NCBI RefSeq assembly: GCF_000731095.1
Contig: NZ_JMTZ01000052.1
Coordinates: 1-57,184, forward strand
DNA from: Lysobacter antibioticus
GTDB lineage: Bacteria > Pseudomonadota > Gammaproteobacteria > Xanthomonadales > Xanthomonadaceae
Direction: 5' to 3'
DNA length: 57,184 nt
Shown here: positions 6,199-49,953 of the stretch, in pieces
How positions within the stretch are numbered: position 1 is the stretch's first letter
Layout: each line of letters opens with the position of its first letter
Position numbers and translations under genes: made by a program
The notes under the pieces: generated by a model
What the model was told of the DNA's origin: nothing
Databases searched by the model: none
Seen by the model: the letters and a program-made list of their open reading frames with translations, nothing else

Positions 6199-6212
6199 GG
6201 CGAGGCCGTGCC

Positions 6213-7544
6213 TCAGCCGCCCAGTGCTTCAGGCAACAGGGCGTCGACGAAGGCCTCGGCATCGAACACGCGCAGATCCTCGGGGCGTTCGCCGATGCCT
6301 GCGAAACGGATCGGAATGCCGAACTCGCGGGCGAGCGCGAACACCACGCCGCCCTTGGCGGTGCCGTCGAGCTTGGTCACCACCAGGCCGGTGACACCGA
6401 CCGCGGCGTGGAACTGGCGCAACTGCGACAGCGCGTTCTGGCCGGTGGTGCCGTCGATGACCATCAGCACTTCGTGCGGCGCGGTGGTGTCGACCTTGGC
6501 CAGCACGCGGCGGATCTTGCCGAGTTCGGCCATCAGCCCCTGTTGCGTGTGCAGGCGGCCGGCGGTGTCGGCGATCAGCACCTGGGTACCGCGCGCCTTG
6601 GCCGCCTGCAAGGCGTCGAACGCGACCGAGGCGGCATCGGCGTTCTGGCCCTGGGCGACCACCGGCACGCCGTTGCGTTCGCCCCAGGCCTGCAACTGCG
6701 CGACCGCGGCGGCGCGGAAGGTGTCGCCGGCGGCGAGCATCAGCGGGCGGTTCTCGTCGCGGAAACGCTTGGCCAACTTGCCGATGGTGGTGGTCTTGCC
6801 GACGCCGTTGACGCCGACCGTCAGCACCACGAAAGGCTTGGCCTGGGTATCGATGACCAGCGGCTTGGCGACCGGCTGCAGCATCGCGATCAGGTCCGTG
6901 CGCAAAGCCGCGAGCAGGGCGTTGGCGTCGGCGAACTCGCGCGACTTCATGCGCTTGCGCAGGCTTTCGACCAACTGGGTGGTGGCGGTGACGCCGACGT
7001 CGGCGGTGATCAGCGCGGTTTCGATCTCGTCGAGCAGGTCGTCGTCCAGGCGCGGGTTGCGCGAGAACAGGCCGCCGAAGCTGCGCGCGAACACGCTGCC
7101 GCGCAAACGCTCGCGCCAGCCGGACTTGCCCGCGGCGGCGGCGGGCTTGTCGATGTAGTCGGCCGGGGCGGATTCGCCAGGTACCGAGATGACCGTGGTG
7201 GATGCGGTTACCGGTGTTGCCGCGGGCGCCACGGGCAAGGGCGGCTCGACTTCGAGCGCGGCGGCCAGCACTTCGGCCGGCACCGGCGGCTCGACGGCAA
7301 CTGGTTCGACGGGAGCCGGCTTGACGGAAGCCGGCGCGACGGCAGGCGGTGCGGCGGCAGGCGGCTGCGGCGCAGGCGGCTCGACCGCGGCCGGCGTCGC
7401 TGCGGGCGCTTCGGCCGGCGGTGCGGCCGGCTCGGGCCGCGCGTTGGGAAACGCGGCGGCCAGCTCTTCGGTGGTGAAACGGCGCTCGGAAGACGAGCTT
7501 CCGCCGGCGGTTTCGGGTTTCTTGCGGCGAAAAAAACTGACCAT
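6213..7544 (-). CDS. ftsY: Signal recognition particle receptor FtsY
   Basis: A 443-residue SRP GTPase that docks ribosome-SRP complexes at the inner membrane. The NG domain shows the P-loop GVNGVGKT (residues 244-251), DTAGRLHTQ and TKLDGTAKGG. The N-terminus MVSFFRRKK is the usual amphipathic membrane-targeting start; a further in-frame ATG at 7592 is less likely since the family starts at MVSFFRR. The A domain (about residues 38-115) is unusual in being almost wholly Pro, Ala, Val and Glu, not mainly acidic as in E. coli. It is transcribed divergently from rsmD and heads an operon with the AsmA-like gene, mutY and yggX. Confidence 0.96.
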   Translation of the reverse strand: MVSFFRRKKPETAGGSSSSERRFTTEELAAAFPNARPEPAAPPAEAPAATPAAVEPPAPQPPAAAPPAVAPASVKPAPVEPVAVEPPVPAEVLAAALEVEPPLPVAPAATPVTASTTVISVPGESAPADYIDKPAAAAGKSGWRERLRGSVFARSFGGLFSRNPRLDDDLLDEIETALITADVGVTATTQLVESLRKRMKSREFADANALLAALRTDLIAMLQPVAKPLVIDTQAKPFVVLTVGVNGVGKTTTIGKLAKRFRDENRPLMLAAGDTFRAAAVAQLQAWGERNGVPVVAQGQNADAASVAFDALQAAKARGTQVLIADTAGRLHTQQGLMAELGKIRRVLAKVDTTAPHEVLMVIDGTTGQNALSQLRQFHAAVGVTGLVVTKLDGTAKGGVVFALAREFGIPIRFAGIGERPEDLRVFDAEAFVDALLPEALGG

Positions 7545-7599
7545 TCGGGAGGCTGGGGGCGAGAAGGCGCGAGGATGCGCGAGAATGTGCACATGCTAG

Positions 7600-8841
<1,242 letters not shown>

Positions 8842-8870
8842 CCACCAAACAAACATCCAAGGGGCAAACG

Positions 8871-9906
<1,036 letters not shown>

Positions 9907-9911
9907 ACACG

Positions 9912-11675
9912 ATGCGCAAGGCGTTGCGGCTGCGGGCCGGTCTGAAGTCTCCCCTCTGCTTGATGGCCACCCTGCTGCTGATCGCCTCGCCCGCGTTGTG
10001 CGCCGACGGCGGCGCCCGCGCGCCCGCGCGCGCCGCCGCGACGGCCAGCGCGGCCGCGCATCCGCCCGGCACCGCGATCGCCAGCGCGCATTCGCTGTCG
10101 ACCCAGGCCGGCCTGGAAATCGTTCGTGCCGGCGGCAATGCCTTCGACGCCGCGATCGCGGTGTCCTCGACCCTGTCGGTGGTCGAGCCGATCAGCTCGG
10201 GCATCGGCGGCGGCGGTTTCTTCCTGTTGCACGACGCCAAGCGCAATCGCGACATTTTCGTCGACGCGCGCGAGACCGCGCCGGCCGCGTCCACGCCGGC
10301 GGCTTATCTGGACGACAAGGGCGAACTCAACCGCGACCGCGCCACCAACGGCCCCTGGTCGGCCGGCATTCCCGGGCTGCCGGCGGCGCTGGTGCACCTG
10401 GCGCAAAACTACGGAAAGCTGCCGCTGAAGACTTCGCTGGCGCCGGCGATCCGCATCGCGCGCGAGGGCTTCGAGGTCTACCCGCGCCTGGAAAAGGGCT
10501 ACGGCAGCCGCCGTGAAGTTATGGAGCGCTACCGCGGCACGCGCGAGGTGTTCCTCGCCGACGGTTCGCCGCCGAAAGCCGGCGAGACCCTCAAGCAGCC
10601 GGATCTGGCCCGCACCCTGGAGCTGCTGGCCGAAAAGGGCTTCGATGGTTTCTATCGCGGCGACGTCGCCGCCAAGCTGTTGGCCTCGGTCAAAGAAGAA
10701 GGCGGCCAATGGCGCGCCGAGGAACTGGCCGGTTACAAAGTGCGCGAGCGCGAGCCGCTGCGCTTGAAGTACCGCGGTTGGGACATCGTCACCGCGCCGC
10801 CGCCGTCCTCGGGTGGTGTGGCCTTGGCCGAGATTCTGCAGGTGCTGCAGGGCTGGGACCTGTCCAAGCTCGATCCCGCGCACCGCACCCACATCCTCGC
10901 CGAAGCCATGCGCCGCGCTTATCGCGACCGCACGATTTATCTGGGCGATCCGGATTTCGTGAAGATGCCGATCAAGCGCCTGACCAGCGCCGATTACGCC
11001 GCCGGCCTGCGCGCGACGATCCATCCCGAGAAGGCCACGCCGAGCGATCTGCTGTCGGGCCAGCCGGCGCCGCTGGAAGACGACGAGACCACCCATTTCT
11101 CGATCATCGACGGCGACGGCAACCGCGTCTCGGCGACCCAGACGGTGAACCTGCTGTACGGCTCGGGCCTGGTCGCGCCGGGCACCGGCGTGCTGCTCAA
11201 CAACGAAATGGACGACTTCGCCTTGCGCCCGGCCACGCCGAACGCGTTCGGCGTCATGGGTTTCGAAGCCAACGCACCGGAACCCGGCAAGCGCATGCTC
11301 AGTTCGATGACGCCGAGTTTCCTGGAATCGTCCGATCGCGTGGTCGCGGTCGGCGCGCCCGGCGGCAGCCGCATCATCACCCAGGTGTTGCTGGCGATCC
11401 TCGCCTACGACGCCGGCCTGCAACCGCAGCAGGTCGCCGCGCAACCGCGCATCCATCACCAGTGGATGCCGGACGCGATCTCGGCCGAAGCCGGCGCGCT
11501 CGATGCCGGCACCGTCGCCAAGCTCCAGACCATGGGCCACAAGGTCAACGCCGGCGAATCGACCTGGGGCAACCTGCAGACGGTGATGTGGGACAAGCGC
11601 GCCAACACCTTGTCCGGCGGCACCGATCCGCGCAATCCGGTCGGCCAGGCCGAGGTGCAGCCGAACAAGCCCTGA
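9912..11675 (+). CDS. ggt: Gamma-glutamyltranspeptidase
   Basis: A 587-residue periplasmic N-terminal-nucleophile hydrolase that cleaves glutathione and transfers gamma-glutamyl groups. Residues 1-31 form a signal peptide (hydrophobic LMATLLLIASPALC, then A-D). The precursor self-cleaves before Thr393 in the TTHFSIID motif to make large and small subunits; that Thr is the nucleophile. Other family motifs are GGNAFDAAIA, GIGGGGFFL, PPSSGG, YGSGL and GAPGGSRIIT. It begins 5 bp after the ferredoxin gene stop. All catalytic features are intact, so activity is expected. Confidence 0.95.
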   Translation: MRKALRLRAGLKSPLCLMATLLLIASPALCADGGARAPARAAATASAAAHPPGTAIASAHSLSTQAGLEIVRAGGNAFDAAIAVSSTLSVVEPISSGIGGGGFFLLHDAKRNRDIFVDARETAPAASTPAAYLDDKGELNRDRATNGPWSAGIPGLPAALVHLAQNYGKLPLKTSLAPAIRIAREGFEVYPRLEKGYGSRREVMERYRGTREVFLADGSPPKAGETLKQPDLARTLELLAEKGFDGFYRGDVAAKLLASVKEEGGQWRAEELAGYKVREREPLRLKYRGWDIVTAPPPSSGGVALAEILQVLQGWDLSKLDPAHRTHILAEAMRRAYRDRTIYLGDPDFVKMPIKRLTSADYAAGLRATIHPEKATPSDLLSGQPAPLEDDETTHFSIIDGDGNRVSATQTVNLLYGSGLVAPGTGVLLNNEMDDFALRPATPNAFGVMGFEANAPEPGKRMLSSMTPSFLESSDRVVAVGAPGGSRIITQVLLAILAYDAGLQPQQVAAQPRIHHQWMPDAISAEAGALDAGTVAKLQTMGHKVNAGESTWGNLQTVMWDKRANTLSGGTDPRNPVGQAEVQPNKP

Positions 11676-11778
11676 GGCGGCGTCTGCGAAACCGCCGCCG
11701 CGATGGCGCGACGGCGGTGCGGTGCAGTAGATTTCGCGGCATGGACGGCGTCAGTACGAAGCGACAGGGGACAGGGCA

Positions 11779-12366
11779 GTGAGCGACGACAACGACAAGC
11801 GTTGGTATACCCGCGTGCCTGCGATCTCGATCGCGCTGGTCGCTTTCCTCGTGGCCCTGACCACCCTGATCAACAACGTGCGCGAGATCGGCGGGCTCAA
11901 GGACAAGCCGACGACACCGGCCGCGCCCTCGCAGCCGGTCGCGACCGCTCCGGTCAAGCCGGCCGCGCCGCAAGCGCCGGCCCGCTACACGGTGCTGCTG
12001 ACCCTGGAGAAGATCGAAGTCGTCAACGACGGCACCAACGGCAGCACGGCCTGGTCGTTCGACGTCAGCGCCGGCGGCCAGGATCTGTTCGCGCTGCCGT
12101 CGCGCGATTACCTGGACAGCGAAGCCGAGCGCATCGTCGCGCCGCGTCCGACCGACCCCTCGATGGGGCGGGTGGTGCTGGTGGCCGGGCAGGAAATGCT
12201 GGTCAAGATCAACGGACGCTCGTCCGGGCTGATCAGCAAGGCCGCGGCCAGCGGCAGCGCCACCCTGCTGGCCGAGCGGCCCCTGGCGCCGGTGCGCGTG
12301 GTCGCAGGCGACGGCCGCGACGGCGAGTTCATTTTCCACTTCGCCACCGTCACCACGCCGCAATGA
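11779..12366 (+). CDS. Single-pass membrane protein of unknown function
   Basis: A 195-residue protein starting at GTG (11779), preceded by GACAGGGCA. A short charged cytoplasmic start (MSDDNDKRWYTR) is followed by one transmembrane segment at about residues 13-34 (VPAISIALVAFLVALTTLI), a Pro/Ala/Lys linker (about 42-68), then a beta-rich domain of about 125 residues with LLTLEKIEVVNDGTNGSTAWSFDVSAGG and a final EFIFHFATVT strand. That part looks like a beta-sandwich and is probably periplasmic, but I recognise no family. It stands between ggt and an MBL-fold gene in the same direction, with 103 bp and 163 bp gaps, and may be monocistronic. Confidence 0.75.
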   Translation: MSDDNDKRWYTRVPAISIALVAFLVALTTLINNVREIGGLKDKPTTPAAPSQPVATAPVKPAAPQAPARYTVLLTLEKIEVVNDGTNGSTAWSFDVSAGGQDLFALPSRDYLDSEAERIVAPRPTDPSMGRVVLVAGQEMLVKINGRSSGLISKAAASGSATLLAERPLAPVRVVAGDGRDGEFIFHFATVTTPQ

Positions 12367-12371
12367 CGGCC

Positions 12372-12394
12372 GCAGGCGCCGCGGCGGCGCCTGC
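12372..12394. terminator. Possible terminator hairpin after the membrane-protein gene
   Basis: GCAGGCGCC and GGCGCCTGC form a 9-bp GC-rich stem around GCGGC, starting 6 bp after the stop codon. No T-tract follows, so it is a weak terminator candidate or a barrier hairpin. Confidence 0.4.
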
Positions 12395-12529
12395 CCATGA
12401 TCGGCCGCTGCACAGCGTGAGCGGCGCCTGTCCACGATCCGCGGCTTCGCCGCATTCCGGCCCGATGCCTGCGTTTGCGCAGTAAAATCGAGCCATCCTT
12501 CGCCAGTGCCCGTAACGGGCGGTGCAGAC

Positions 12530-13416
<887 letters not shown>

Positions 13417-15158: not shown

Positions 15159-15512
15159 TCAGTCTGCGACGGCGTAGAGGTTGTCGCCGTCGGCGATCAC
15201 CTGGGCGACGAACAGCGAAAATCCGCGGATCTCGGCTGGGTCGGTGAACCGGGCCTCGAGCCGCTTCAGTTCGGCATGCAGATCCGCCAGTTCGCAGGAC
15301 GAGATCTCGGCGTCGGCGAGGTAGTCGTGCAGCCTGCGCAGCAGCGGATACTCGTGGTGCGGCAGCGCCCGGGCCATCAACTGCTGGTGGAAGGGCAGGT
15401 CGATGGCGAACGATTTGCGCGAGGCGGGCGCCTCGCGTTCGTGCCGGGCCTGGATCAGGTCGAGCGCCATGACGGGGCGCAAGTCGGGCCGCGGCGTGGC
15501 CGCGGCCGACAT
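15159..15512 (-). CDS. Hypothetical cytoplasmic protein
   Basis: A 117-residue protein without signal peptide or TM segment. After a variable start (MSAAATPRPDLRP) comes a helical, charged sequence (MALDLIQARHEREAP, YPLLRRLHDYLADAEISSCELADLHAELKRLEARF) and a C-terminal FSLFVAQVIADGDNLYAVAD. It may bind a partner through its helices; I know no family name. GAGG lies 8 bp before the ATG at 15512. It lies 10 bp downstream of the 80-residue acidic protein gene in the same direction, so the two probably form an operon. Confidence 0.75.
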   Translation of the reverse strand: MSAAATPRPDLRPVMALDLIQARHEREAPASRKSFAIDLPFHQQLMARALPHHEYPLLRRLHDYLADAEISSCELADLHAELKRLEARFTDPAEIRGFSLFVAQVIADGDNLYAVAD

Positions 15513-40823: not shown

Positions 40824-41756
40824 TCAGAACCCCGGGCGCAGCTTGACCTGTTCGAGCTCGCGCTTGATCGAGCGCCAGAACAGGCTCGGCGCGATCCAGG
40901 TGTAGGCGCAAAACCCCAGCCACAGGTAGGACAGCGGTCCGGCCCAGTGCGACAGGCCATGCTCGGGCAGGGCGATCAGGGCGATGCGGTAGAGCAGGAA
41001 GATGCCGAGCAGCAGCACCACCGCGCGGGTACGCGAACCAGCGCTGATATAGCTTTGGAACCGCCACCACAGCCCGAGCAGCCAGCTGCGGCGCGCTTTC
41101 ACCGCCGCCATCAAGGTCAGGGCCTCGCCGTCCATCGGGTCGATCTGCAGCGCCCAGGCGGCGTGGTCGCGGGCGCTGTCGGTACGACCGGCGGCGAGTT
41201 CGCAATGGCCGAGCACGCACAAGGCCTCGACGTGTTCGGGATGCGCGGCCAGCACCTCGCGCGCCAGAGCCTCGGCCTTGCGGCGTTCGCCGCGGCGCAG
41301 TTCCAGCGAGGCCAGCAGGGCCTGGTAGTCGACATCGGCCGGCTCCAGCTCGCAGGCGCGGCGCGCTTCTTCCAGGGCCTGCGCATCGCGGCCCCAGGCG
41401 TTGTAGAGGCGGGCGAAGGCATCGGCGATCGAGGCCGAGTCCGGGTCGAGTTCGCGCGCCGAGTGCAGATGCGTTTCGGCGTCGCGGAAACGCCGCCCGG
41501 CGGTCGCCACGATCGCCGCGGCCAGGTGCGCGAACGGCGAATCGGGTTCGAGTTCGAGCGCGCGCGCGGCTTCCAGCGCGGCCGCATGCAGGCGCTTGCG
41601 CTTGACCAGGCACAGGGCCAGGAAGGCGTGCGCGCCGGCCTGCTCGGGGTCTTCGCCGAGCAGACGCAGCAACACGGCGATGGCTTCGTCGATCTGGCCG
41701 TGGGCGTAGTAACGCTCGGCCATCTGCAACCAGTAACCGTGGCTGGCGTCGTTCAT
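40824..41756 (-). CDS. TPR-repeat membrane protein in the AAA+ operon
   Basis: A 310-residue protein. Residues about 1-215 form TPR repeats (YWLQMAERYYAHGQIDEAIAVL, HAFLALCLVKRKRLHAAALEA, AHLAAAIVATAGRRFRDAE, IADAFARLYNAWGRDAQALEEA, LASLELRRGERRKAEALA, LCVLGHCELAAGRTDSARD), and the C-terminus carries two TM helices (about 240-260 and 265-285). The TPR part should face the cytoplasm and bind partner proteins at the membrane. The ATG overlaps the stop of the preceding membrane-protein gene (ATGA). It is the last gene of the AAA+ operon. Confidence 0.85.
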   Translation of the reverse strand: MNDASHGYWLQMAERYYAHGQIDEAIAVLLRLLGEDPEQAGAHAFLALCLVKRKRLHAAALEAARALELEPDSPFAHLAAAIVATAGRRFRDAETHLHSARELDPDSASIADAFARLYNAWGRDAQALEEARRACELEPADVDYQALLASLELRRGERRKAEALAREVLAAHPEHVEALCVLGHCELAAGRTDSARDHAAWALQIDPMDGEALTLMAAVKARRSWLLGLWWRFQSYISAGSRTRAVVLLLGIFLLYRIALIALPEHGLSHWAGPLSYLWLGFCAYTWIAPSLFWRSIKRELEQVKLRPGF

Positions 41757-42229
41757 TGCAGGATCACCGACAGCAAGGCGGGCAGTTGCACGGCGCCGAG
41801 CGCGCCGCGCCCGACCACGGCCAGCAGGATCGTCAACGGCAGGCCGTTGCGCGCCTGGCCGCCGTAGTACTCCCAGATCTCGAAGCAGCGTTGCTGCATC
41901 AGGTACACGGCATAGGCCATGCCGAGCTTGAGCAACAGGATGCTCAGAAACGCGTAGCGCAACTGCGCGCCCTGCAGCCAACCGTTCTGCTCGCACAGCA
42001 GCAGAGCGAACAGCAGCAGCGGGCTGCCGACCGCGCTCAGGCCGATGCACAGCCATTCGCGCCAGCGCGTCGGGCTGCCGATCGCCAGCGAATTGAAGCC
42101 GAACCAGAGCAGGCCGAAGCCGCTGCCGGCCAGCATCACGCTGAGCAAGGGCCAGACCGGATCGACCGCGTAACGCGACAGGCCGGACGGCAAGGGCTCG
42201 TCGGGCAAACGATAGACCGAGGCCGCCAT
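41753..42229 (-). CDS. Multi-pass membrane protein in the AAA+ operon
   Basis: A 158-residue inner-membrane protein with four predicted TM helices at about 26-48, 58-80, 92-111 and 131-154. Tyr/Trp-rich loops (FEIWEYYGGQARNG) lie between helices 3 and 4. I know no family name. Its start overlaps the AAA+ ATPase stop (TGATG) and its stop overlaps the TPR gene start (ATGA), so all three are made as a unit. It may anchor the ATPase and TPR proteins at the membrane. Confidence 0.82.
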   Translation of the reverse strand: MAASVYRLPDEPLPSGLSRYAVDPVWPLLSVMLAGSGFGLLWFGFNSLAIGSPTRWREWLCIGLSAVGSPLLLFALLLCEQNGWLQGAQLRYAFLSILLLKLGMAYAVYLMQQRCFEIWEYYGGQARNGLPLTILLAVVGRGALGAVQLPALLSVILQ

Positions 42230-43584
42230 CAGCCGCCTCCGTGGCGCTTGAGGAACTCCAGCACCTCGTCGTACTGGCCGCCCTGATTGGCGTAACGGGC
42301 GTGATTGCGCGCCGTGGTCAGCCACTCCAGAGTGGTCGAACGGGTGTCCTTGAGAGCCGCGCGCAGGTGGCTCATGGTCAGCGGCATTTCCCTGCCCTGG
42401 TCGATCGAGGCCTCGATGGCCTCGTCGATCGCGGTCTCGACCAGGTTGCGCAGGTCGGCGCCGGAATAACCCGAGCTCAAGCGCGCGATCTCGGCGCCGT
42501 CGATGTCGTCGCCGAGCGGGCGCTCGCGCAGCAACAGCTCGAGGATGGCGCGCCGCGCCGGCTCGTCCGGCGGCGGCACGAACAGCACCCGGTCGAAGCG
42601 GCCGGGGCGGCGGAACGCGGCGTCGACCGCCCACGGCACGTTGGTCGCGCCGAGGATCAGCACGCCCTGGTTGTTCTGGCCGAAGCCGTCGAGTTCGGTC
42701 AGGAACTGGCTGACCAGCTTGGCCGAGGTGGCCTCGCGCGAGTACTGGCGCTTGCCGCCGATGGCCTCGATCTCGTCGAAGAACACCACCGCCGGGGCGG
42801 TGCGCCGCGCGGTCTCGAAGATCGCATGCAGCTTGCGCTCGGACTCGCCGATATACATGTCGAGCACGTCGGTAATGGCCACGTTGTAGAAACGCGCGCC
42901 GCACTCGCCGGCGGTGGCGCGGGCGAGCAGGGTCTTGCCGCAGCCGGGCGGCCCGTACAGCAGGATGCCGCCGCCGGAGCGGCGCTTGAAGCGCTCGAAC
43001 AGCGAGGGCTTGAGGAAGGGGGTGATGATGCGGCGGCGGATCTGGTGCTTGACCTCGTCCAGGCCGCCGACGTCGGCGAAACCGATTCGCGCCTCCGGCG
43101 GCTGCAACAGCCGCGATACGTCGTCGGCATCGGTGTCGTCGTTGGCGATGCTGGTCTGCAGGCTGCCCGATTGCATGCGCCGCGCATTGGCCAGCGAGAT
43201 CACCTTGCCGGCCAGCTCGGTCGCCAGGGCGGCGTCTTCGAGCGCCGGGTTGAGGGCGATGGCCTGCTGGTACAGGCTGCGCGCGTCTTCGCGGCGGCCT
43301 TCGCCGAGCAGCAGGCGCGAACGCGCGAACAGCGAGGCCGCCGAATTCTCCGGCGCGATCCGCACCACGCGTTCATCGTGGCGGTGCTCCAGCAGCAAAC
43401 GCAGAGCGGCGTCGCGCTGGGTCGGGTCGGCCAGCAGGGCGTCGCCGCCGAGTTCGATCGCACGGATCAATGCGTCCGGGTCGGATTCGTTCAGGCAGGC
43501 GTTCACGACCAGCATGCCGAGCGCCGGGTTGTGCGGGCTGGCGGCCAGCGCGGCGAGCAGATCGTCGAGGGAGGTATCGGGCAT
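42229..43584 (-). CDS. Classical AAA+ ATPase (Cdc48/Vps4-like) with N-terminal helical repeat
   Basis: A 451-residue ATPase. Residues 1-130 are helical with a TPR-like motif (LFARSRLLLGEGRREDARSLYQQAIALNP). The AAA+ core has Walker A GPPGCGKT (211-218), Walker B VVFFDE (266-271), a pore-loop-like YIGESERK, sensor GATN, the second-region-of-homology Arg fingers in RRPGRFDR, and the C-terminal lid (SGYSGADLRNLVETAIDEA). This is the classical group of FtsH/Cdc48/Vps4, not the MoxR group. Such enzymes thread or remodel proteins. It leads the operon with the membrane and TPR proteins and starts divergently from the MoxR operon. Confidence 0.93.
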   Translation of the reverse strand: MPDTSLDDLLAALAASPHNPALGMLVVNACLNESDPDALIRAIELGGDALLADPTQRDAALRLLLEHRHDERVVRIAPENSAASLFARSRLLLGEGRREDARSLYQQAIALNPALEDAALATELAGKVISLANARRMQSGSLQTSIANDDTDADDVSRLLQPPEARIGFADVGGLDEVKHQIRRRIITPFLKPSLFERFKRRSGGGILLYGPPGCGKTLLARATAGECGARFYNVAITDVLDMYIGESERKLHAIFETARRTAPAVVFFDEIEAIGGKRQYSREATSAKLVSQFLTELDGFGQNNQGVLILGATNVPWAVDAAFRRPGRFDRVLFVPPPDEPARRAILELLLRERPLGDDIDGAEIARLSSGYSGADLRNLVETAIDEAIEASIDQGREMPLTMSHLRAALKDTRSTTLEWLTTARNHARYANQGGQYDEVLEFLKRHGGG

Positions 43585-43832
43585 GACGGCATCCTGGCCG
43601 GGTGTGGCGGCGTATAGCGTAAAGAAAAACCGCGCAGGATAGGTCCGCGATCGCAACCGTACCGTGGCGCCGGTTGCGGTTCGACGAGCGCTGCGCCTAC
43701 AGTGCGAACTGTGGCGCAGGTCCGTTTCCGGGCCGCGAACCACGCCCCGTCAGCAAGCCCGCCGCCGCAGGACCGCGCGCCGCCCGCGCGCCGTCCGCCG
43801 ATGGCGACGCCAAGGATCCAGGCCGTCCGTCG
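43585..43832. promoter_or_regulatory. Divergent gap between the two AAA+ operons
   Basis: This 248-bp stretch lies between the start codons of the classical AAA+ and the MoxR ATPase and must contain the promoters of both operons. The segment 43610-43640 (AAAGAAAAACC) is A-rich and fits a leftward promoter region. No clear -35/-10 pair or palindrome stands out by eye. Confidence 0.45.
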
Positions 43833-44975
43833 ATGACTTTTTCGCCCGAACCTTCCGCCGCAGAGCAGGCCGCGGCCCGCGTCCGCGATGCCGTGCATTC
43901 CGCCACCACCGGCCTGGTCGAGCGCGAGCAACTCGCCGAGCTGATCGTGCTCGCCGCGGTCGCCCAGGAACACCTGTTGATCATCGGCCCGCCCGGCACC
44001 GCCAAGAGCGCGGTGGTGCGGCGCGTCGCGGCCGCGCTCGGCGGCCGTTACTTCGAGTACCTGCTCGGGCGCTTCACCGAGCCGGCCGAATTGTTCGGCC
44101 CGGTCGACCTGCGCCGGCTGCGCGAGGGCGTGGTCGAGACCGACGTCACCGGCATGCTGCCCGAAGCCGAGGTTGCCTTCCTCGACGAGGTCTTCCTCGG
44201 TTCGACCGCGATCCTCAACACCTTGCTCGGCGTGCTCAACGAGCGCCGCTTCCGTCGCGGCCACACCCAGATCGATTGCCCGCTGCGGGTCTGCGTGGGC
44301 GCGGCCAATGCCTTGCCCGACGACGAATCGCTGGCCGCGTTCGCCGACCGTTTCCTGCTGCACCTGTTCGTCGAGCCGGTGCCGGACCATCAACTCGAAG
44401 CCCTGCTCGAAGGCGGTTGGCAGTCCGAGCGCGCCGCGGTCGAGCACCGCACCGAACTGGCCGATATCGATTTGCTGAGCCGACGCGTGCCGCAGGTAAG
44501 CATGGGCCCTGCGCGCGGCCTGCTGGCCGATGCGATCCGCAGATTGCGCAGTGCCGGTCTGAGCCTGTCGGACCGGCGCATCGTCAAGGTCCAGCGCCTG
44601 ATCGCCGCAGCGACCGTGCTCGCCGGCCGCGACACCGCGACCGCCGCCGACCTGTGGCCGCTGTTCTATGTGATGCCGACCCGCGAGGCGCAGGCGGCGG
44701 CCCAGGACGCCTTGCGCGATTCGCTGTCGGCGGCGGCCAACCCGACACTGCGCGCCGCGGTCGAACATGCGGTGTTGCAGCCGGTGTCGCGCGCCGCGCG
44801 CCTGATCGAAGCCGCGCGCAGTTGCCTGCACGGCGCGGCCGACGCACCGGCCGCGACGACGATAGCGGAAGCCCTGCTGCGCGAGATCGACGCCAACTTC
44901 GACCCGCATTCGATTCCGCCCGAACTCGCCGCCGAGCGCGCGCGGCTGGTCGAACGGGTCGCCGCGCCGACATGA
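43833..44975 (+). CDS. MoxR family AAA+ ATPase
   Basis: A 380-residue MoxR/RavA-type ATPase. Walker A GPPGTAKS (52-59), the MoxR-typical FTEPAELFGPVDL (81-93), Walker B VAFLDEVF (114-121), sensor 1 AANALPDD and ADRF (171-174, Arg sensor) are intact. The rest is a helical lid and C-terminal region. MoxR proteins remodel metal-site or membrane complexes together with vWA proteins. ATG 43833 is chosen as the first Met with family-like sequence after it; a longer in-frame N-terminus is open but non-conserved. Its stop overlaps the next gene's start (ATGA), placing it first in a four-gene operon. Confidence 0.92.
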   Translation: MTFSPEPSAAEQAAARVRDAVHSATTGLVEREQLAELIVLAAVAQEHLLIIGPPGTAKSAVVRRVAAALGGRYFEYLLGRFTEPAELFGPVDLRRLREGVVETDVTGMLPEAEVAFLDEVFLGSTAILNTLLGVLNERRFRRGHTQIDCPLRVCVGAANALPDDESLAAFADRFLLHLFVEPVPDHQLEALLEGGWQSERAAVEHRTELADIDLLSRRVPQVSMGPARGLLADAIRRLRSAGLSLSDRRIVKVQRLIAAATVLAGRDTATAADLWPLFYVMPTREAQAAAQDALRDSLSAAANPTLRAAVEHAVLQPVSRAARLIEAARSCLHGAADAPAATTIAEALLREIDANFDPHSIPPELAAERARLVERVAAPT

Positions 44976-45388
44976 AGTGGCGCTGGCGCGCAGAGGCCGA
45001 CCCGCCCGCGCCGCAAGGCGCGATCGGGATCGGCGCGGCGGCGCAGGGCCTGCTCGATGCGCTCGCGCGCTTCGACGCGCGCACGCGCGAAGCCCTGATG
45101 CTGACCGCGAACGCCGATGCCGCCATCGTCACCGGTGCCGGCGAAGCGCTGCCGTGGAGCGACGGCGTGGCCTATATCGCGCCGCGCCAGGAAGCGCCAG
45201 CGCTGTGGCTGCCGACCACGCAGCGCCCGGACCTGCCGCTGGACTTGCTGCTGCGCGCGATCGCGCGTCGGCATCGGCAGTCGCCGCTGCTGCTGTGGCC
45301 CGAGCCGATGCAGATCGTGCCCTTGCACCGGGCGCTGCCGGCGAGCGACGCGTTGATCGCGCAGATCCGCGCGCACTGGCGGAGCTGA
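44972..45388 (+). CDS. Small bpX5-like protein of the MoxR-vWA-propeller system
   Basis: A 138-residue protein, starting with an ATGA overlap with the MoxR gene and ending 4 bp before the vWA/propeller gene. It has an N-terminal KWRWRAEADP, a helical GLLDALARFDARTREALML, then LPWSDGVAYIAPRQEAPALWLPTTQRPDLPLDLLLRAI and a final HRALPASDALIAQIRAHW. From position and these features I match it to the small 'bpX5' domain of MoxR-vWA-beta-propeller ternary systems; this is from memory and not checked. It could be an adaptor between MoxR and the propeller proteins. Confidence 0.72.
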   Translation: MKWRWRAEADPPAPQGAIGIGAAAQGLLDALARFDARTREALMLTANADAAIVTGAGEALPWSDGVAYIAPRQEAPALWLPTTQRPDLPLDLLLRAIARRHRQSPLLLWPEPMQIVPLHRALPASDALIAQIRAHWRS

Positions 45389-45392
45389 GCCG

Positions 45393-47228
45393 ATGCGGGT
45401 ACCCGAGGCGCTCAAACCCTGGCGGCCGTGGCTGGACTGGTTCGATGCCGAGATCGTCGACCTGCTCGGCGATCTGCTGCTGCGCCTGCACCCGATGCTC
45501 GGTGCGTTCCGGATGCGCGCCCAGCGCGGCGCGGCCGAGCCAGAGGGCATCGACGATCTGCGCCGGCGCGGCCATTACGAGCGCCTGTTGCTCAGCGAGT
45601 GGGCGCTGGCCGACGAGGTGCCGGAAGAATTCGACCGCCGCGCCGCCGGCGGCGAGCATCTGTTCCTGTCGCCGAAACTCGTCGCGCGCGAAGCCGATGC
45701 GCTGACCGTGGCGGTGTTCGACACCGGCCCGGGCCAGCTCGGCGCGGCGCGCCTGGTGCACGTGGCGATGTGGATCCTGCTGGCCGAACGCGCGCAGGCG
45801 GCGAAGGCGCGCTTCGCCTGGGGCGTGCTCGGTGCGCCCGGCGTGCTGCATCCGGCCGACGCGCCCGAACGTCTCAAGCAATTGCTGCAGGCGCGCAGCC
45901 TGACACCGGGCGGCCCCGCTTCCGACAGCGCGGGCAACGCACAGGCCGCGCGCGACCATCACGAACGCGAGTGGCGGCGTGCGCTCGACGAAGCCGATCC
46001 GAGCCCGGGCGAGCGCTGGTCGATCGGCGCGCATGCGGCCGGCTATGGTCTGGGCCATCGCGTTGACGTTGCGCGTGCCGGCGAGCAACAGCTCGCAGTG
46101 ACCATCGCCTCGCGCCAGGCGCGGCGCGAACTGCGCCTGGCCTTGCCGTCGCCCGAGCGTTCCAGCGCCTTGCTGCGCGGCGAATTCGAGCGCGTCGAGG
46201 TCTTGCGTCTGACCGAAGTCGCTACCGGCGCGCGCGGCCAGGGCAAGTTGTCGCTGAAGCAGCCACCGTTGATCTCCTGGGGCGGCCGCCACATCGCCGT
46301 GCCGCTCGCCGGCGAGAGCGCCGCCCATGTCTATCGTTTGCCCTCCAGCGCCGTGGCGCGCTTGGCGCCGCCGAAAACCACGCGCTGGGGCAAAGGCAAA
46401 TCGCTGCTCGCCGCGACCCTGACCGAGCGCCATTTCGCCGGGCTGATTCCGCTGTCGCAAGGGTTGGAGGGCTGGCAACTCGAGGGCATGGGCCGGCTGC
46501 CGTTGCCGCCGCAGGGCGATCTCGATGTCACTACCGGCACGGCGCGCCTGCTACCTTGCGTGTTTTTCAATCGCGGTGCGGGTTATCGGCGCCTGTTGCT
46601 GCTTACGAGCCAGCGCAAACTGCTGTCGTGGACGTCGCAGGGATCCGAGCCGAGCGCGTACGAGGTCGTGGGCGAGCAGGTGCTGGCGATCGCGCGTACC
46701 AGTGCCACGCAGGCGGTGTACTTGCGCTGCCACGATGGCCGCCTGCATCTGCACTCGAGTCTTCACGCCGAAGCTCTGGATTGCATCGCCTTCCAGGGCC
46801 AAGCCCGTAGCGCTTTTCTGAGCGGCCGCTGTTCTCTCGACAGTTGGCAGGGCGGCTGTTGCGTCGAGCAGATCGTCGGCGGTCACGGCGGCGAACGCTC
46901 CAGCATCTGGCGGGTGTTCATGCGCACCGCCGAGCGCCCGGCGACCGAGTACGAAATCGTGCTGCCGGCCGACTGGAAAGTGGTCGGGCTAAGCCAACCC
47001 GACGGCGACGACATGGGTTTGATCGCCTTGCGTCCGGACCGCAAGGCGCTGCTGCGCATCGGCGCGCAAGAACGTTCGGTGCTGTACGAATCGCCGAGTC
47101 CGATCAGTACGGTCAGCGTCGCCGTCGACGCCGACCTGATCGCCTTGGTCGACCTGCAAGGCCGTTTGGTGGTGTTGCGCGACGGCGCGCGAAAGATGCT
47201 CGTCTACACAGGGGGAGACGATGGCTGA
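45393..47228 (+). CDS. Degenerate vWA domain fused to a beta-propeller
   Basis: A 611-residue protein. Residues about 90-170 look like a von Willebrand A core (TVAVFDTGPGQLGAARLVHVAMWILLAER, then FAWGVLGAPGVLH), but the metal-binding MIDAS motif DxSxS is DTGPG (Asp110), so metal binding is probably lost. The C-terminal ~360 residues are blade-like beta repeats (LISWGGRHIAVPLA, YRRLLLLTSQRKLLSWTSQG, AVYLRCHDGRLHLHSSLH, LIALVDLQGRLVVLRDG), consistent with a beta-propeller. vWA proteins are the usual MoxR partners. It starts 4 bp after the small gene and its last 8 bp overlap the next gene. Confidence 0.82.
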   Translation: MRVPEALKPWRPWLDWFDAEIVDLLGDLLLRLHPMLGAFRMRAQRGAAEPEGIDDLRRRGHYERLLLSEWALADEVPEEFDRRAAGGEHLFLSPKLVAREADALTVAVFDTGPGQLGAARLVHVAMWILLAERAQAAKARFAWGVLGAPGVLHPADAPERLKQLLQARSLTPGGPASDSAGNAQAARDHHEREWRRALDEADPSPGERWSIGAHAAGYGLGHRVDVARAGEQQLAVTIASRQARRELRLALPSPERSSALLRGEFERVEVLRLTEVATGARGQGKLSLKQPPLISWGGRHIAVPLAGESAAHVYRLPSSAVARLAPPKTTRWGKGKSLLAATLTERHFAGLIPLSQGLEGWQLEGMGRLPLPPQGDLDVTTGTARLLPCVFFNRGAGYRRLLLLTSQRKLLSWTSQGSEPSAYEVVGEQVLAIARTSATQAVYLRCHDGRLHLHSSLHAEALDCIAFQGQARSAFLSGRCSLDSWQGGCCVEQIVGGHGGERSSIWRVFMRTAERPATEYEIVLPADWKVVGLSQPDGDDMGLIALRPDRKALLRIGAQERSVLYESPSPISTVSVAVDADLIALVDLQGRLVVLRDGARKMLVYTGGDDG

Positions 47229-49953
47229 AACGAACGATAAGGCGGAGGCGCAGGCCGATGCGACGGTCCGCTATCCGGTCTGGCGCGGCTGGCAACCCGT
47301 CGCCGGATTGTGGTTCGGCGCCGACTGGCTGGCGCCGGAACGGCGCGCCGAACGCATTCTGCAAGCGTGGACGATGGGCTGTCGCGCCTGGCGTTTCGAC
47401 GACGGCGACGTGCTCTGCTTCGAGCAGGCGCGGCCGATGCAATGCAGCGAAGCGGCCGGCGTGCCTTTGTGCCGCATCGGTGCGCACGGGCTGTACGCGG
47501 GGCCGTTGACCGCCGACGAACTCGCCGCGCTGGCGCCGGCCGACGTGCAACTGGTGGTCGGCGGGCGCTTGCAGCCGCTGCACTTCGCCCAGGCGCAGGC
47601 GCTGGACCCTTCGCTGGTCATCGACATCGACGACTACGCCCTGCACGACACCTACGATGGCCGCTTCAGTCTGCGCGCGCCGCGCCACGACCGGCTCGCC
47701 GGCAAGCGCGTGCGCGAAGTGCTGGGCGACAGTGTTCCGCCGCCGAGCAAGGAGCAGGCCGAATTCCTGCGCCGTGCACACGGCGGTGTGGGCACCGAGG
47801 CGCCGCCGAGCTTGCGCGAACGCGTCACCGGCACCCGCGACGGCATGGCCGATTGGCTGTTGCGGCGTTTTCCGGGCTTGTCGGGCGAGCCGGGGCAGGC
47901 GCGCAGCGGCCACGCCACGCAGACGCGCAACGGTGGCGCCGGCACCTTGCGCGCACGCGCCGCGCCGCGCGCGCCGCAGGCCTGGCGTTCGGCCCTGGTG
48001 CGTTTCGCAATGGCGAGCCGCGCCTCGAAACTGATCGGCATGCGCCAGGGGGCCTACCTGCGCCGGATGATGGCGCAGTTCGAAAAAGGCGATCTCGGCG
48101 AGGCGTTGCGTAATGCCTTGCCGATCGACGGCCGCGGCGATTCGCTGGGCCAGGCTTTCGGTACACCGGGCCGGCGTGGCGACCTCAGTCTCGGCGGCGA
48201 TCGTCATGCATCGACCGACATCAATCTCGGCGACTACGAGCGCGAGCACCTGCGCAAACTCTATCGCCAGGCTTTCGACAAACTCGACCGCCAGGGCCAG
48301 GTCGACGAAGCCGTGTTCGTGCTCGCCGAGTTGCTCAACGCGCGCCAGGAAGCGCTGGATTATCTGGTGCGCCACCAGCGCCATGCGCAGGCGGCCGAGC
48401 TTGCGCTGAGCTGGGACATGCCGGCGGAAACCATCATCCGTTTGCTGATGCTGTCCGGCGACAGCGAGCGCGCGATCCTGGTCGCGCGTCGCGACAATGC
48501 CTTCGCCGCGGCGATCGCGATGTTGGAAAAAGACCACCCCGAGCACGCAGGCAGGCTGCGCCGCGAATGGGGCCAGGCGCTGGTCGAGCGGGGGCAGTGG
48601 TTGGCCGCGGTCGATGCGGTCTGGCCGGAGCCGGAACTGCGCGAGCAGGCCGGACGCTGGCTGCTCGCAGCCGAGGCTGCAGGCGACGAATTGTCGGCGC
48701 GCGCTTTGGTGCAGCGCGCGACTCTGTTGCCCGACACGATCGAACACTATGCCGAGCGCATCGCGGTCCTGGCCGATCCGGCGTCGCCTGCGTTGCCGCG
48801 CGCGGCCCTGGCCGAAGCGCTGCTCGCCGCCAAGGGCAACGGCAAGGCCTTGCGCATGCTCGCCACCCACGTGTTGCCGGCGCTCGCAGCCGATCGCGCT
48901 GCATGCGCGAACGATCTCGACCGCCAGCAATTGGAGCGCCTGCTGAAATTGTCCGGCGACCCCTGGCTGCGCGCCGATCTGCCGGCCTGGGGCGTGCCGG
49001 CGGTAGCCGGGCGCAAGCTGTGGGAGAGCCAGGGCGAGCAACGCTGGCAGGCGCCCGCGGCCGGGTTGCATGCCGCGCACGATGTCGTCGCGATCGGCGA
49101 GGGCCGCTATCTCGCCGCGCTCGGCGAAGCCGGCGTCGCGGTCATCGACCGTCACGGCCGCAGTGTCCGTCGTTATGCGGTGCCGGCCTACAAGTTGGCG
49201 ATCGCCGACAGCCTGCAGGTGGCCTTGGCGATCGCGCCGCGCGAGGCGGTGTCGCGCATCGCACGGCTGGATCTGGCCCATCACGAGATCGCCGATCTCG
49301 GGGTGATGCCGATCCAGTTCGCCGCCGACCGTTACGACGGCATCGCCTGGTCGCTGGTGTCGAACGACCGCCTGCTGGTGGTCGACGCGGCGCGGCCGTC
49401 GCTCGATGTGTTGTGGAGCGTCAGCGAGCCCAACAGCCGGGTGATCGCGGCGGAGTATTTCGCCGCCGACGAGTTGTTCCTGATCCAGGACGCGCGCGGC
49501 GCGAGTTGCTGGCATTACCGCTTGCCGCGGCGCGCCCTGCGTTCGCGCGACGCCGTACCCGAGAGCCTGGAACAACGCTTGCGCCTGCACCCCATCACCG
49601 GCGCGCAATTGCTCGATGTGTCGGCCGACGACGACGGCATGTTGTTGGCGTACTCGTGGTCGAACTATCGGCGCAGCGTGCAGTTGTCCGCGCATGCACT
49701 CGGCAAGCTGCGCGACTGCAGCATCAAGTCGCTCGCCAACGGCTTCCTGGTCGGCCTGTACGGCGAGGAGGCGATGCGCTTCCACTTGGTCCGCTTCAAC
49801 GACGCGGCCTCGCTGGCGGCGATCGATTGGCCGTACGGCGCGGCGGTGTCGGTGCGCGAGCAGGACGGCCGCCTGCTGATGTACGACGACCAGGGCCGGG
49901 TGTTGGACATCGACACCCAGCGCAGCCAGGTGCATGGGCTGTCCTTGCTCTGA
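47221..49953 (+). CDS. Large bpX6-like helical/beta-propeller protein
   Basis: A 910-residue protein without signal peptide or TM helix. The N-terminal ~170 residues (YPVWRGWQPVAGLWFGADWL, AWRFDDGDVLCFEQ) fit the 'bpX6' domain as I recall it. Residues about 200-330 hold a basic, Arg-rich region; about 345-560 are helical, possibly TPR- or HEAT-like (KLYRQAFDKLDRQGQVDEAVFVLAELL, ERAILVARRDNAFAAAIAML). From about 575 to 910 blade-like strands repeat (GEGRYLAALGEAGVAVIDRHG, DRLLVVDAARPSLDVLW, GRLLMYDDQGRVLDIDT), a second beta-propeller. GGGGGAG precedes the ATG. It ends the four-gene operon before a strong terminator. Confidence 0.8.
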   Translation: MAETNDKAEAQADATVRYPVWRGWQPVAGLWFGADWLAPERRAERILQAWTMGCRAWRFDDGDVLCFEQARPMQCSEAAGVPLCRIGAHGLYAGPLTADELAALAPADVQLVVGGRLQPLHFAQAQALDPSLVIDIDDYALHDTYDGRFSLRAPRHDRLAGKRVREVLGDSVPPPSKEQAEFLRRAHGGVGTEAPPSLRERVTGTRDGMADWLLRRFPGLSGEPGQARSGHATQTRNGGAGTLRARAAPRAPQAWRSALVRFAMASRASKLIGMRQGAYLRRMMAQFEKGDLGEALRNALPIDGRGDSLGQAFGTPGRRGDLSLGGDRHASTDINLGDYEREHLRKLYRQAFDKLDRQGQVDEAVFVLAELLNARQEALDYLVRHQRHAQAAELALSWDMPAETIIRLLMLSGDSERAILVARRDNAFAAAIAMLEKDHPEHAGRLRREWGQALVERGQWLAAVDAVWPEPELREQAGRWLLAAEAAGDELSARALVQRATLLPDTIEHYAERIAVLADPASPALPRAALAEALLAAKGNGKALRMLATHVLPALAADRAACANDLDRQQLERLLKLSGDPWLRADLPAWGVPAVAGRKLWESQGEQRWQAPAAGLHAAHDVVAIGEGRYLAALGEAGVAVIDRHGRSVRRYAVPAYKLAIADSLQVALAIAPREAVSRIARLDLAHHEIADLGVMPIQFAADRYDGIAWSLVSNDRLLVVDAARPSLDVLWSVSEPNSRVIAAEYFAADELFLIQDARGASCWHYRLPRRALRSRDAVPESLEQRLRLHPITGAQLLDVSADDDGMLLAYSWSNYRRSVQLSAHALGKLRDCSIKSLANGFLVGLYGEEAMRFHLVRFNDAASLAAIDWPYGAAVSVREQDGRLLMYDDQGRVLDIDTQRSQVHGLSLL

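What the first reader, a model, noticed from the sequence alone, without database searches (positions are those of the whole stretch)
40824..49953. Two divergent AAA+ operons that form a MoxR-vWA-beta-propeller (bpX-type) system
Seven genes are arranged divergently over a 248-bp gap. Rightward: MoxR AAA+, a bpX5-like small protein, a vWA-propeller fusion and a large helical-propeller protein, all linked by stop/start overlaps or gaps of 4 bp. Leftward: a classical Cdc48-like AAA+, a four-TM protein and a TPR-TM protein, likewise overlapping. MoxR-vWA-beta-propeller 'ternary systems' were proposed by comparative genomics (Aravind group) as regulated NTP-dependent conflict or protein-quality machines, and I know of no experimental study. 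The leftward arm adds membrane anchoring. It is the best candidate for an undescribed system in this window.
Basis: partly seen in the sequence, partly recalled or inferred. Interest (0 to 1): 0.88.

Follow-up and report, generated by a model that had tools for sequence, protein, structure and literature searches.

The report
MoxR-propeller cassette beside unrelated AAA operon
A known but untested kind of bacterial ATP-driven machine, whose propeller-shaped part differs unusually strongly between close Lysobacter species, happens to sit next to a separate three-gene membrane operon; the two look like neighbours rather than one system.

Summary
The seven genes are real and arranged as described. 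The rightward four are a MoxR-vWA-beta-propeller cassette of the kind published in 2020: bpMoxR 307 bits, bpX5 175, bpX6 234. Its gene order holds in all 69 loci, of 78 found, that show all four genes. The leftward trio is not an obligate part. It adjoins the cassette in 4 of the 67 loci with 2 kb or more before MoxR, all Lysobacter. It stands without the cassette in three genomes of other families. In nine other Xanthomonadaceae loci it directly follows an M13 peptidase gene, which points to insertion of the cassette between them. One Lysobacter has the cassette without the trio, and four have neither. New here: the propeller of the 611-aa protein is hypervariable in Lysobacter. In pair L029-L189 the median of 37 genes is 97.6% identical, but the propeller 47%; four-fold synonymous differences rise from 3/94 to 35/79, as if old alleles had been exchanged. 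I read it as the recognition part. vWA homology was not detectable, and no defence function is shown.

The parts
43833..44975 (+). MoxR AAA+ ATPase (bpMoxR), P-loop GPPGTAKS, motor of the cassette
   Evidence: Pfam bpMoxR 307 bits, cut-off 27; GxxxTAKS P-loop in 77 of 81 members, window included; closest solved structure by sequence RavA, 138 bits
44972..45388 (+). bpX5 small protein (138 aa), function unknown
   Evidence: Pfam bpX5 175 bits, residues 2-136
45393..47228 (+). vWA-like (residues ~100-250, degenerate) plus C-terminal beta-propeller (residues ~276-606) protein; propeller hypervariable in Lysobacter
   Evidence: AlphaFold + Foldseek; divergence profile; position in the cassette as in Kaur et al. 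2020
47221..49953 (+). third component: N-terminal bpX6 domain (16-185), conserved core (~261-600, helical by inference), C-terminal region taken as a propeller from the literature
   Evidence: Pfam bpX6 234 bits; region conservation; fold not modelled here
43585..43832 (.). 248-bp divergent intergenic region with two separate conserved blocks: TTGCGG-18 nt-TACAGT on the MoxR side, and a tagggtaa-type block on the AAA side
   Evidence: alignment of 13 Lysobacter loci; reading the blocks as promoters is my inference; the sigma-70 scan found none
42229..43584 (-). NOT part of the cassette: ATPase with a p97/Cdc48 D2-like AAA domain and a weak TPR-like N-terminal match below cut-off; first gene of the separate trio
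   Evidence: Pfam AAA 137.8 bits, TPR_2 21.0 against cut-off 27; PDB VCP-like ATPase 366 bits; synteny
41753..42229 (-). NOT part of the cassette: four-TM protein without a Pfam family
   Evidence: 4 hydrophobic segments; no Pfam hit above cut-off, no NCBIfam hit at E<=0.1
40824..41756 (-). NOT part of the cassette: TPR protein with C-terminal membrane segment(s)
   Evidence: Pfam TPR families; one segment by hydropathy, a second by eye

Best explanation
Two separable modules lie back to back. The right-hand one (43833-49953) is a beta-propeller-type MoxR-vWA ternary cassette that most likely inserted between an M13 peptidase gene and an older AAA-TM-TPR operon in a Lysobacter ancestor. Most likely mechanism: MoxR forms an ATP-driven ring (inferred from RavA/NorQ); the vWA-like N-terminal part of the 611-aa protein couples to that ring (inferred); its propeller binds a ligand that differs between lineages and is replaced or diversified as a block (variability shown, binding inferred); binding lets the ring remodel the conserved bpX6 third component, with bpX5 as a small adaptor, and so switches on an output that remains unknown (inferred). 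Whether the ligand is a phage or competitor product or a variable protein of the cell itself is open; I lean to a foreign or conflict-related ligand.
For: Membership. Fixed order: all 69 loci, of 78 found, with all four genes; of the other 9, six look cut by contig ends and three lack a detectable bpX5. Separability of the arms. Variable propeller: among compared window genes, vWAprop is the most divergent of 37 in two close pairs (0.653 against a median of 0.976; 0.588 against 0.948) and second of 34 in the third (0.861 against 0.986). The change is local: in L029-L189 residues 1-120 are 98% identical and 361-480 27-32%. Four-fold synonymous differences rise with it (L029-L189: 3/94 to 35/79, p=1.8e-11; L027-L189: 5/93 to 36/79, p=4e-10; 8 of 11 pairs at p<0.05, pairs sharing rows), so the tract looks older than the rest of the gene. 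All 15 Lysobacter copies are open over 605-652 codons, and dN/dS of the gene is below 0.7 in 9 of 10 pairs (the tenth, 1.6, rests on hardly any synonymous change). A similar logic was proposed for VMAP systems, where the vWA protein carries a DGR-varied lectin domain (PMC10907252, passages).
Against: No vWA homology by Pfam in any of 60 members, by PDB profile, or by Foldseek at E<=0.001. Within the propeller, changes are not generally concentrated in loops (significant in 1 of 5 pairs). The tree test did not reject one clade for L027/L029/L189 (p-AU 0.15); it rejected another group, with L190, that I chose after seeing the tree (0.001). Pairs L033-L191, L032-L192 and L193-L194 show no significant synonymous jump. 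bpX6 is also more divergent than the neighbourhood (second lowest in one and third lowest in another of the three pairs). Xanthomonas (10 pairs, 0.87-0.98) and Pseudomonas (1 pair, 0.99) propellers are not hypervariable; Variovorax (0.52-0.77) and Corallococcus (0.58-0.91) are intermediate. There is no PADLOC match in nine flanking genes, no phage and one weak plasmid relative, and CRISPR-like arrays beside only 2 of 78 cassettes. The bpX6 domain kept in 71 of 74 third components does not look like a swapped effector.
Confidence: 0.55

Rival explanations
1. The cassette is a chaperone for assembling or activating one of the cell's own complexes (as RavA-ViaA and NorQ-NorD are), and the propeller varies because its client does. 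It has no conflict role.
For: Stable composition over distant phyla; N-terminal bpX6 domain not swapped (71 of 74); ordinary chromosomal setting; near absence from phage and plasmid records; RavA is the closest solved relative of MoxR by sequence.
Against: Patchy presence (17 of 247 Xanthomonadaceae genomes, own included; 3 of 321 genomes of the class for bpX6, own included); no client-like gene linked across genera seen in the shown part of the neighbour clustering; block divergence of the propeller between close species.
Confidence: 0.35
2. The propeller is simply under weak constraint; its divergence is fast drift without a role in recognition.
For: Across genera the propeller is on average the fastest part (mean identity 0.68 when MoxR is 0.94-0.97, 24 pairs); changes fall on strands and loops alike in 4 of 5 pairs.
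Against: Synonymous divergence rises with protein divergence in the same tract, which relaxed selection alone does not give; frames are open and dN/dS is below 0.7 in 9 of 10 pairs; the jump is pair-specific, not clock-like.
Confidence: 0.2
3. One reading: both arms form one seven-gene system, the leftward arm giving a second AAA+ and membrane anchoring.
For: Adjacent with a 227-342 bp gap in 13 Lysobacter loci measured; both modules in 15 of 20 Lysobacter genomes, adjacent in 14; co-occurrence in 247 family genomes: 12 both, 5 and 5 single, 225 neither, p=4e-13.
Against: Co-occurrence is concentrated in two genera, so genomes are not independent; in 5 of the 12 the modules lie on different contigs or 196 kb apart. 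Cassette without trio in G157; trio next to M13a without cassette in nine loci; trio without cassette in three other families; trio in 4 of 67 cassette loci with enough upstream sequence. The AAA is not the two-domain FtsH protein of the FtsH ternary systems.
Confidence: 0.07

Closest known systems
Beta-propeller MoxR-vWA ternary systems (Kaur et al. 2020, eLife, PMC7159879, subsystem 4; Pfam bpMoxR, bpX5, bpX6)
   Same: MoxR with GXXXTAKS P-loop; propeller C-terminal in the protein at the vWA position; third component; extra small conserved gene; no conventional effector; presence in Xanthomonas and Pseudomonas
   Different: vWA part too degenerate to detect here; no membrane segment predicted in the third component; N-terminal domain of the third component kept in this subtype, while the most variable part in Lysobacter is the propeller of the 611-aa protein
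VMAP ternary systems with DGR-varied vWA-lectin sensor (PMC10907252, passages read)
   Same: MoxR plus a (putative) vWA protein that carries the variable, putatively ligand-binding domain
   Different: Propeller instead of C-type lectin; variation includes synonymous changes over about 1 kb, unlike targeted adenine mutation (recalled); the single reverse transcriptase match in the genome is on another contig
RavA-ViaA and NorQ-NorD MoxR/vWA chaperones (search listing only)
   Same: MoxR motor; RavA is the nearest solved relative by sequence
   Different: RavA equivalog score 160.7 against a cut-off of 681; fused propeller, bpX5 and bpX6 genes
FtsH ternary systems (Kaur et al. 2020, subsystem 3, section 21 read)
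   Same: A classical AAA protein encoded near a MoxR cassette
   Different: Here a single p97-D2-like AAA domain, not a double FtsH-type protein; linkage seen only in Lysobacter

Membership tests
Beta-propeller MoxR-vWA ternary system | MoxR AAA+ component, often with GXXXTAKS P-loop | tested here: met
   bpMoxR 307 bits; GPPGTAKS at residue 52, GxxxTAKS in 77 of 81 members. The bpMoxR model alone is not diagnostic: it rings in 12 of 14 control genomes.
Beta-propeller MoxR-vWA ternary system | Propeller C-terminal in the vWA component | tested here: met
   AlphaFold model, strands from 276 to 606; Foldseek matches to propeller-bearing complexes, best E 2.8e-08, whole-chain TM-scores low
Beta-propeller MoxR-vWA ternary system | vWA domain in that component (may be divergent) | tested here: inconclusive
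   No Pfam or PDB sequence match; alternating strands and helices at pLDDT 88 but no Foldseek match at E<=0.001, a NorQD chain at rank 38; D110, G117, R120, W209 invariant in 60 of 60, no DxSxS
Beta-propeller MoxR-vWA ternary system | Third component of the bpX type | tested here: met
   Pfam bpX6 234 bits
Beta-propeller MoxR-vWA ternary system | TPR and propeller in the third component (described as typical) | tested here: inconclusive
   No Pfam TPR or propeller hit at E<=1; not modelled
Beta-propeller MoxR-vWA ternary system | Highly variable N-terminal region of the third component (described; not the defining feature) | tested here: inconclusive
   Same bpX6 N-domain in 71 of 74 third components over 700 aa found through the core patterns; the search covered one subtype only
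Beta-propeller MoxR-vWA ternary system | Membrane-spanning segment in the third component (described; not the defining feature) | tested here: not met
   No segment at the hydropathy threshold in the window protein
RavA (equivalog) | NCBIfam RavA score over cut-off | tested here: not met
   160.7 against 681 bits
FtsH ternary system | Third component with two FtsH-type AAA domains | tested here: not met
   Leftward AAA has one AAA domain, p97-D2-like
IetA/IteA anti-phage ATPase (for the leftward AAA) | NCBIfam IteA score over cut-off | tested here: not met
   90.6 against 510 bits; PADLOC IetA partial match 95.5 bits over residues 204-409

The most novel reading that the evidence does not exclude
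The 611-aa protein is an immune-type receptor: its propeller is an exchangeable recognition module, replaced as a block by recombination between Lysobacter lineages, which feeds a conserved MoxR ATPase and a conserved third component. It would be a variable-sensor system that reaches diversity without a diversity-generating retroelement.
Probability: 0.3. Interest if true: 0.75.

Novelty: new member of a known kind. Interest (0 to 1): 0.45.

Why it matters
Beta-propeller MoxR systems have been called enigmatic because they carry no conventional effector (PMC7159879, section 22), and I saw no experiment on them in the searches made. Knowing which part varies suggests the recognition element and gives a direct swap experiment. 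Showing that the AAA-TM-TPR operon is separable avoids a false seven-gene model, and exposes a second three-gene unit whose TM protein matches no Pfam family above cut-off.

Tried and rejected
Rejected: one obligate seven-gene system. Rejected: leftward AAA as FtsH-ternary or IetA/IteA member, MoxR as RavA. Thought unlikely: DGR as the source of variation; the only reverse transcriptase match is on another contig and synonymous sites vary too. Not found: silent propeller donors; no second copy in the 8 genomes searched (two G157 pieces lie in one gene). Not seen: a swapped N-terminal effector in the third component of this subtype.

Led nowhere: Rfam on the window (nothing); PHROGs for four proteins (nothing); 'bpX5' as a paper term (a chromatography column); neighbour clustering over 78 loci (generic kinases/regulators and lineage-specific synteny in the part shown, output cut); promoter/terminator scan (no more than chance); loop against strand concentration of changes (1 of 5 pairs).

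Rows dropped: one search left out L031 and L038 (near-copies), one search left out L031 and L067; one search skipped L078, L091 and L142 (piece too short); one search used 59 of 72 relatives plus the window; one search left out the loci titled Lysobacter (at least some are the same genomes as the unnamed ones). In one search, 4 of 78 third components under 700 aa were not counted. In one search, 11 of 78 loci had no full MoxR or under 2 kb before it. One search scanned with two patterns from the core of the third component, so cassettes lacking them were not seen.
Full report
What is there. The window is contig C52 of a 5.5-Mb genome in 168 contigs. The genus is inferred: contigs of same-genus genomes have the lengths of named Lysobacter contigs (for example G090:C18 and Lysobacter sp. 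Root690, both 597,613 bases). Nearby genes look chromosomal and ordinary: phosphate transporter, rhomboid protease, two M13 peptidases, beta-CASP nuclease. None of nine flanking proteins tested matches PADLOC at E<=0.001.

What the rightward arm is. Pfam gives bpMoxR (307 bits), bpX5 (175) and bpX6 (234), three families named after the MoxR-vWA-beta-propeller ternary systems. Kaur et al. 2020 (PMC7159879; I read the abstract, sections 8, 21 and 22, and passages) describe these systems as having a propeller C-terminal to a divergent vWA domain, a MoxR often with a GXXXTAKS P-loop, a third component and extra small genes. The P-loop here is GPPGTAKS, and 77 of 81 members fit GxxxTAKS. The bpMoxR model by itself is not diagnostic, since it rings in 12 of 14 control genomes; bpX5 and bpX6 ring in none of the 14.

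The 611-aa protein. Its C-terminal half is modelled as a beta-propeller (AlphaFold mean pLDDT 77; Foldseek against PDB, best E 2.8e-08, whole-chain TM-scores low). Its vWA identity is not shown. None of 60 members gave a vWA Pfam hit, no PDB sequence matched, and the well-predicted N-terminal model (pLDDT 88) had no Foldseek match at E<=0.001; the rows shown are mostly RecA/Rad51-type chains, with a NorQD chain at rank 38. An Asp after the first strand of the alternating part (D110) is invariant in 60 of 60, but the DxSxS pattern is absent. I therefore call it vWA-like, resting on position and the literature.

Distribution of the cassette. A scan of 84,980 species genomes gave 78 loci; by record titles (ranks recalled) they lie in Xanthomonadales, Burkholderiales and relatives, Pseudomonas, Myxococcota, Actinomycetota and single other groups. 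All four genes are detected in 69, in the same order in all 69. Six of the other nine look cut by contig ends; three actinomycete loci lack a detectable bpX5. In the sampled family bpX5 is in 17 of 247 genomes, and in the class bpX6 is in 3 of 321, own genome included. Phage records gave none and plasmid records one weak match.

The leftward arm is a separable module. The TM protein (a specific marker, no Pfam family above cut-off) is in 17 of 247 family genomes. Both modules are in 12, each alone in 5, neither in 225 (p=4e-13). These genomes lie mainly in two genera and are not independent, and in 5 of the 12 the modules lie on different contigs or 196 kb apart. In nine loci (L058-L066; three genus codes, one of them the window's genus) M13a-AAA-TM-TPR are contiguous with no cassette, although L060 is cut within the TPR gene; a tenth, L067, is cut before AAA. 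In three genomes of other families the trio stands without an M13a-like gene and without the cassette within the 20-kb stretch read. In the genus, 20 genomes fall into 14 with cassette and trio adjacent, one with both 196 kb apart, one with the cassette only (G157), and four with neither and an M13a-rhomboid site holding nothing between that matched. The simplest history is insertion of the cassette between M13a and AAA in a Lysobacter ancestor. Among the 78 cassette loci four, all Lysobacter, show the trio; 67 hold 2 kb or more before MoxR. The AAA domain is most like the second domain of p97/Cdc48.

The variable propeller. In close Lysobacter pairs the 611-aa gene is an outlier of the neighbourhood. 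It is lowest of 37 genes in two pairs (65.3% against a median of 97.6%; 58.8% against 94.8%) and second lowest of 34 in the third (86.1% against 98.6%), where a 117-aa ORF at 15159-15512 is lower; bpX6 is second and third lowest in the first two. The divergence lies after about residue 160-250. In L189 the first 160 residues are 96% identical to L029 and 98% to L027, residues 280-560 only 47% and 45%. Synonymous changes at four-fold sites rise in the same place (L029-L189 3/94 to 35/79, p=1.8e-11; L190-L193 9/91 to 25/76, p=4e-4; 8 of 11 pairs at p<0.05, pairs sharing rows). This points to replacement by an old allele rather than selection alone. The topology test is mixed: p-AU 0.15 for the L189 group, 0.001 for an L190 group that I chose after seeing the tree. 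Three pairs show no significant jump. Outside Lysobacter, pairs with MoxR at 93% or more have propellers at 0.87-0.98 (Xanthomonas, 10 pairs), 0.99 (Pseudomonas, 1), 0.52-0.77 (Variovorax, 6) and 0.58-0.91 (Corallococcus, 13), against 0.36-0.94 in Lysobacter (16). Changes are not concentrated in loops in 4 of 5 pairs. No second propeller copy was found in 8 genomes.

The third component. Its core is the most conserved part (mean identity of 14 relatives to the window protein 64%), then the bpX6 domain (52%) and the C-terminal region (44%). The bpX6 domain is present in 71 of 74 proteins over 700 aa. In this subtype, therefore, I see no swapping of the third component's N-terminus.

How it most likely works. 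Shown: conserved motor, conserved third component, variable propeller, fixed gene order, separable neighbour. Inferred: the ring couples to the vWA-like part as in RavA/NorQ systems (seen as search listings and in section 8 of PMC7159879); the propeller recognises a ligand that changes between lineages; ATP-driven remodelling of the third component gives the output. A paper on VMAP systems proposes the same division of labour, with the vWA protein carrying the varied sensor (PMC10907252, passages). A house-keeping chaperone with a variable client is the main rival.

Novelty. The cassette is a new member of a published class. What I did not see in the paper searches or in the passages read is block variability of the vWA-linked propeller, nor an experiment on the subtype. 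The library lacks most subscription journals and I read only parts of two papers, so this is no proof of absence. A paper search for the AAA-TM-TPR operon next to M13 returned nothing, but its terms were narrow.

Noticed in passing
window 40824-43584: AAA (p97-D2-like) - four-TM - TPR-TM operon found as a trio in three other families of the class (L152, L153, L154); the TM protein has no Pfam family above cut-off.
   Followed up: partly
window 15159-15512: A 117-aa ORF is only 57.7% identical between two genomes whose compared window genes have a median of 98.6%.
   Followed up: no
L091 (Xanthomonas phaseoli), about 7500-12673: The cassette looks decayed: the vWA-like/propeller gene and the bpX6 gene are each split into separate open pieces. 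Intact copies exist in other Xanthomonas.
   Followed up: no
L072, L073, L074, L085, L086, L091, about 5562-6790 (-): A roughly 303-aa repeat protein (leucine-rich by eye) lies divergently beside MoxR in 6 of 78 loci, all Xanthomonas or Pseudoxanthomonas: a different neighbour in the place of the AAA trio.
   Followed up: partly
L112, L113, L139 (Corallococcus): About 1.8-3.3 kb of extra sequence, enough for one more gene, between the MoxR and bpX5 frames in some myxobacterial cassettes.
   Followed up: no
L114:14-4039; L123:1022-4821: CRISPR-like arrays (57 and 10+39 repeat copies) upstream of MoxR in 2 of 78 loci. L123 is titled Comamonas but its neighbours cluster with Myxococcus, so the title may be wrong.
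   Followed up: partly
L026 (G157): A Lysobacter that keeps the cassette but lacks the AAA-TM-TPR trio at the same site; no TM4 match in its genome.
   Followed up: yes
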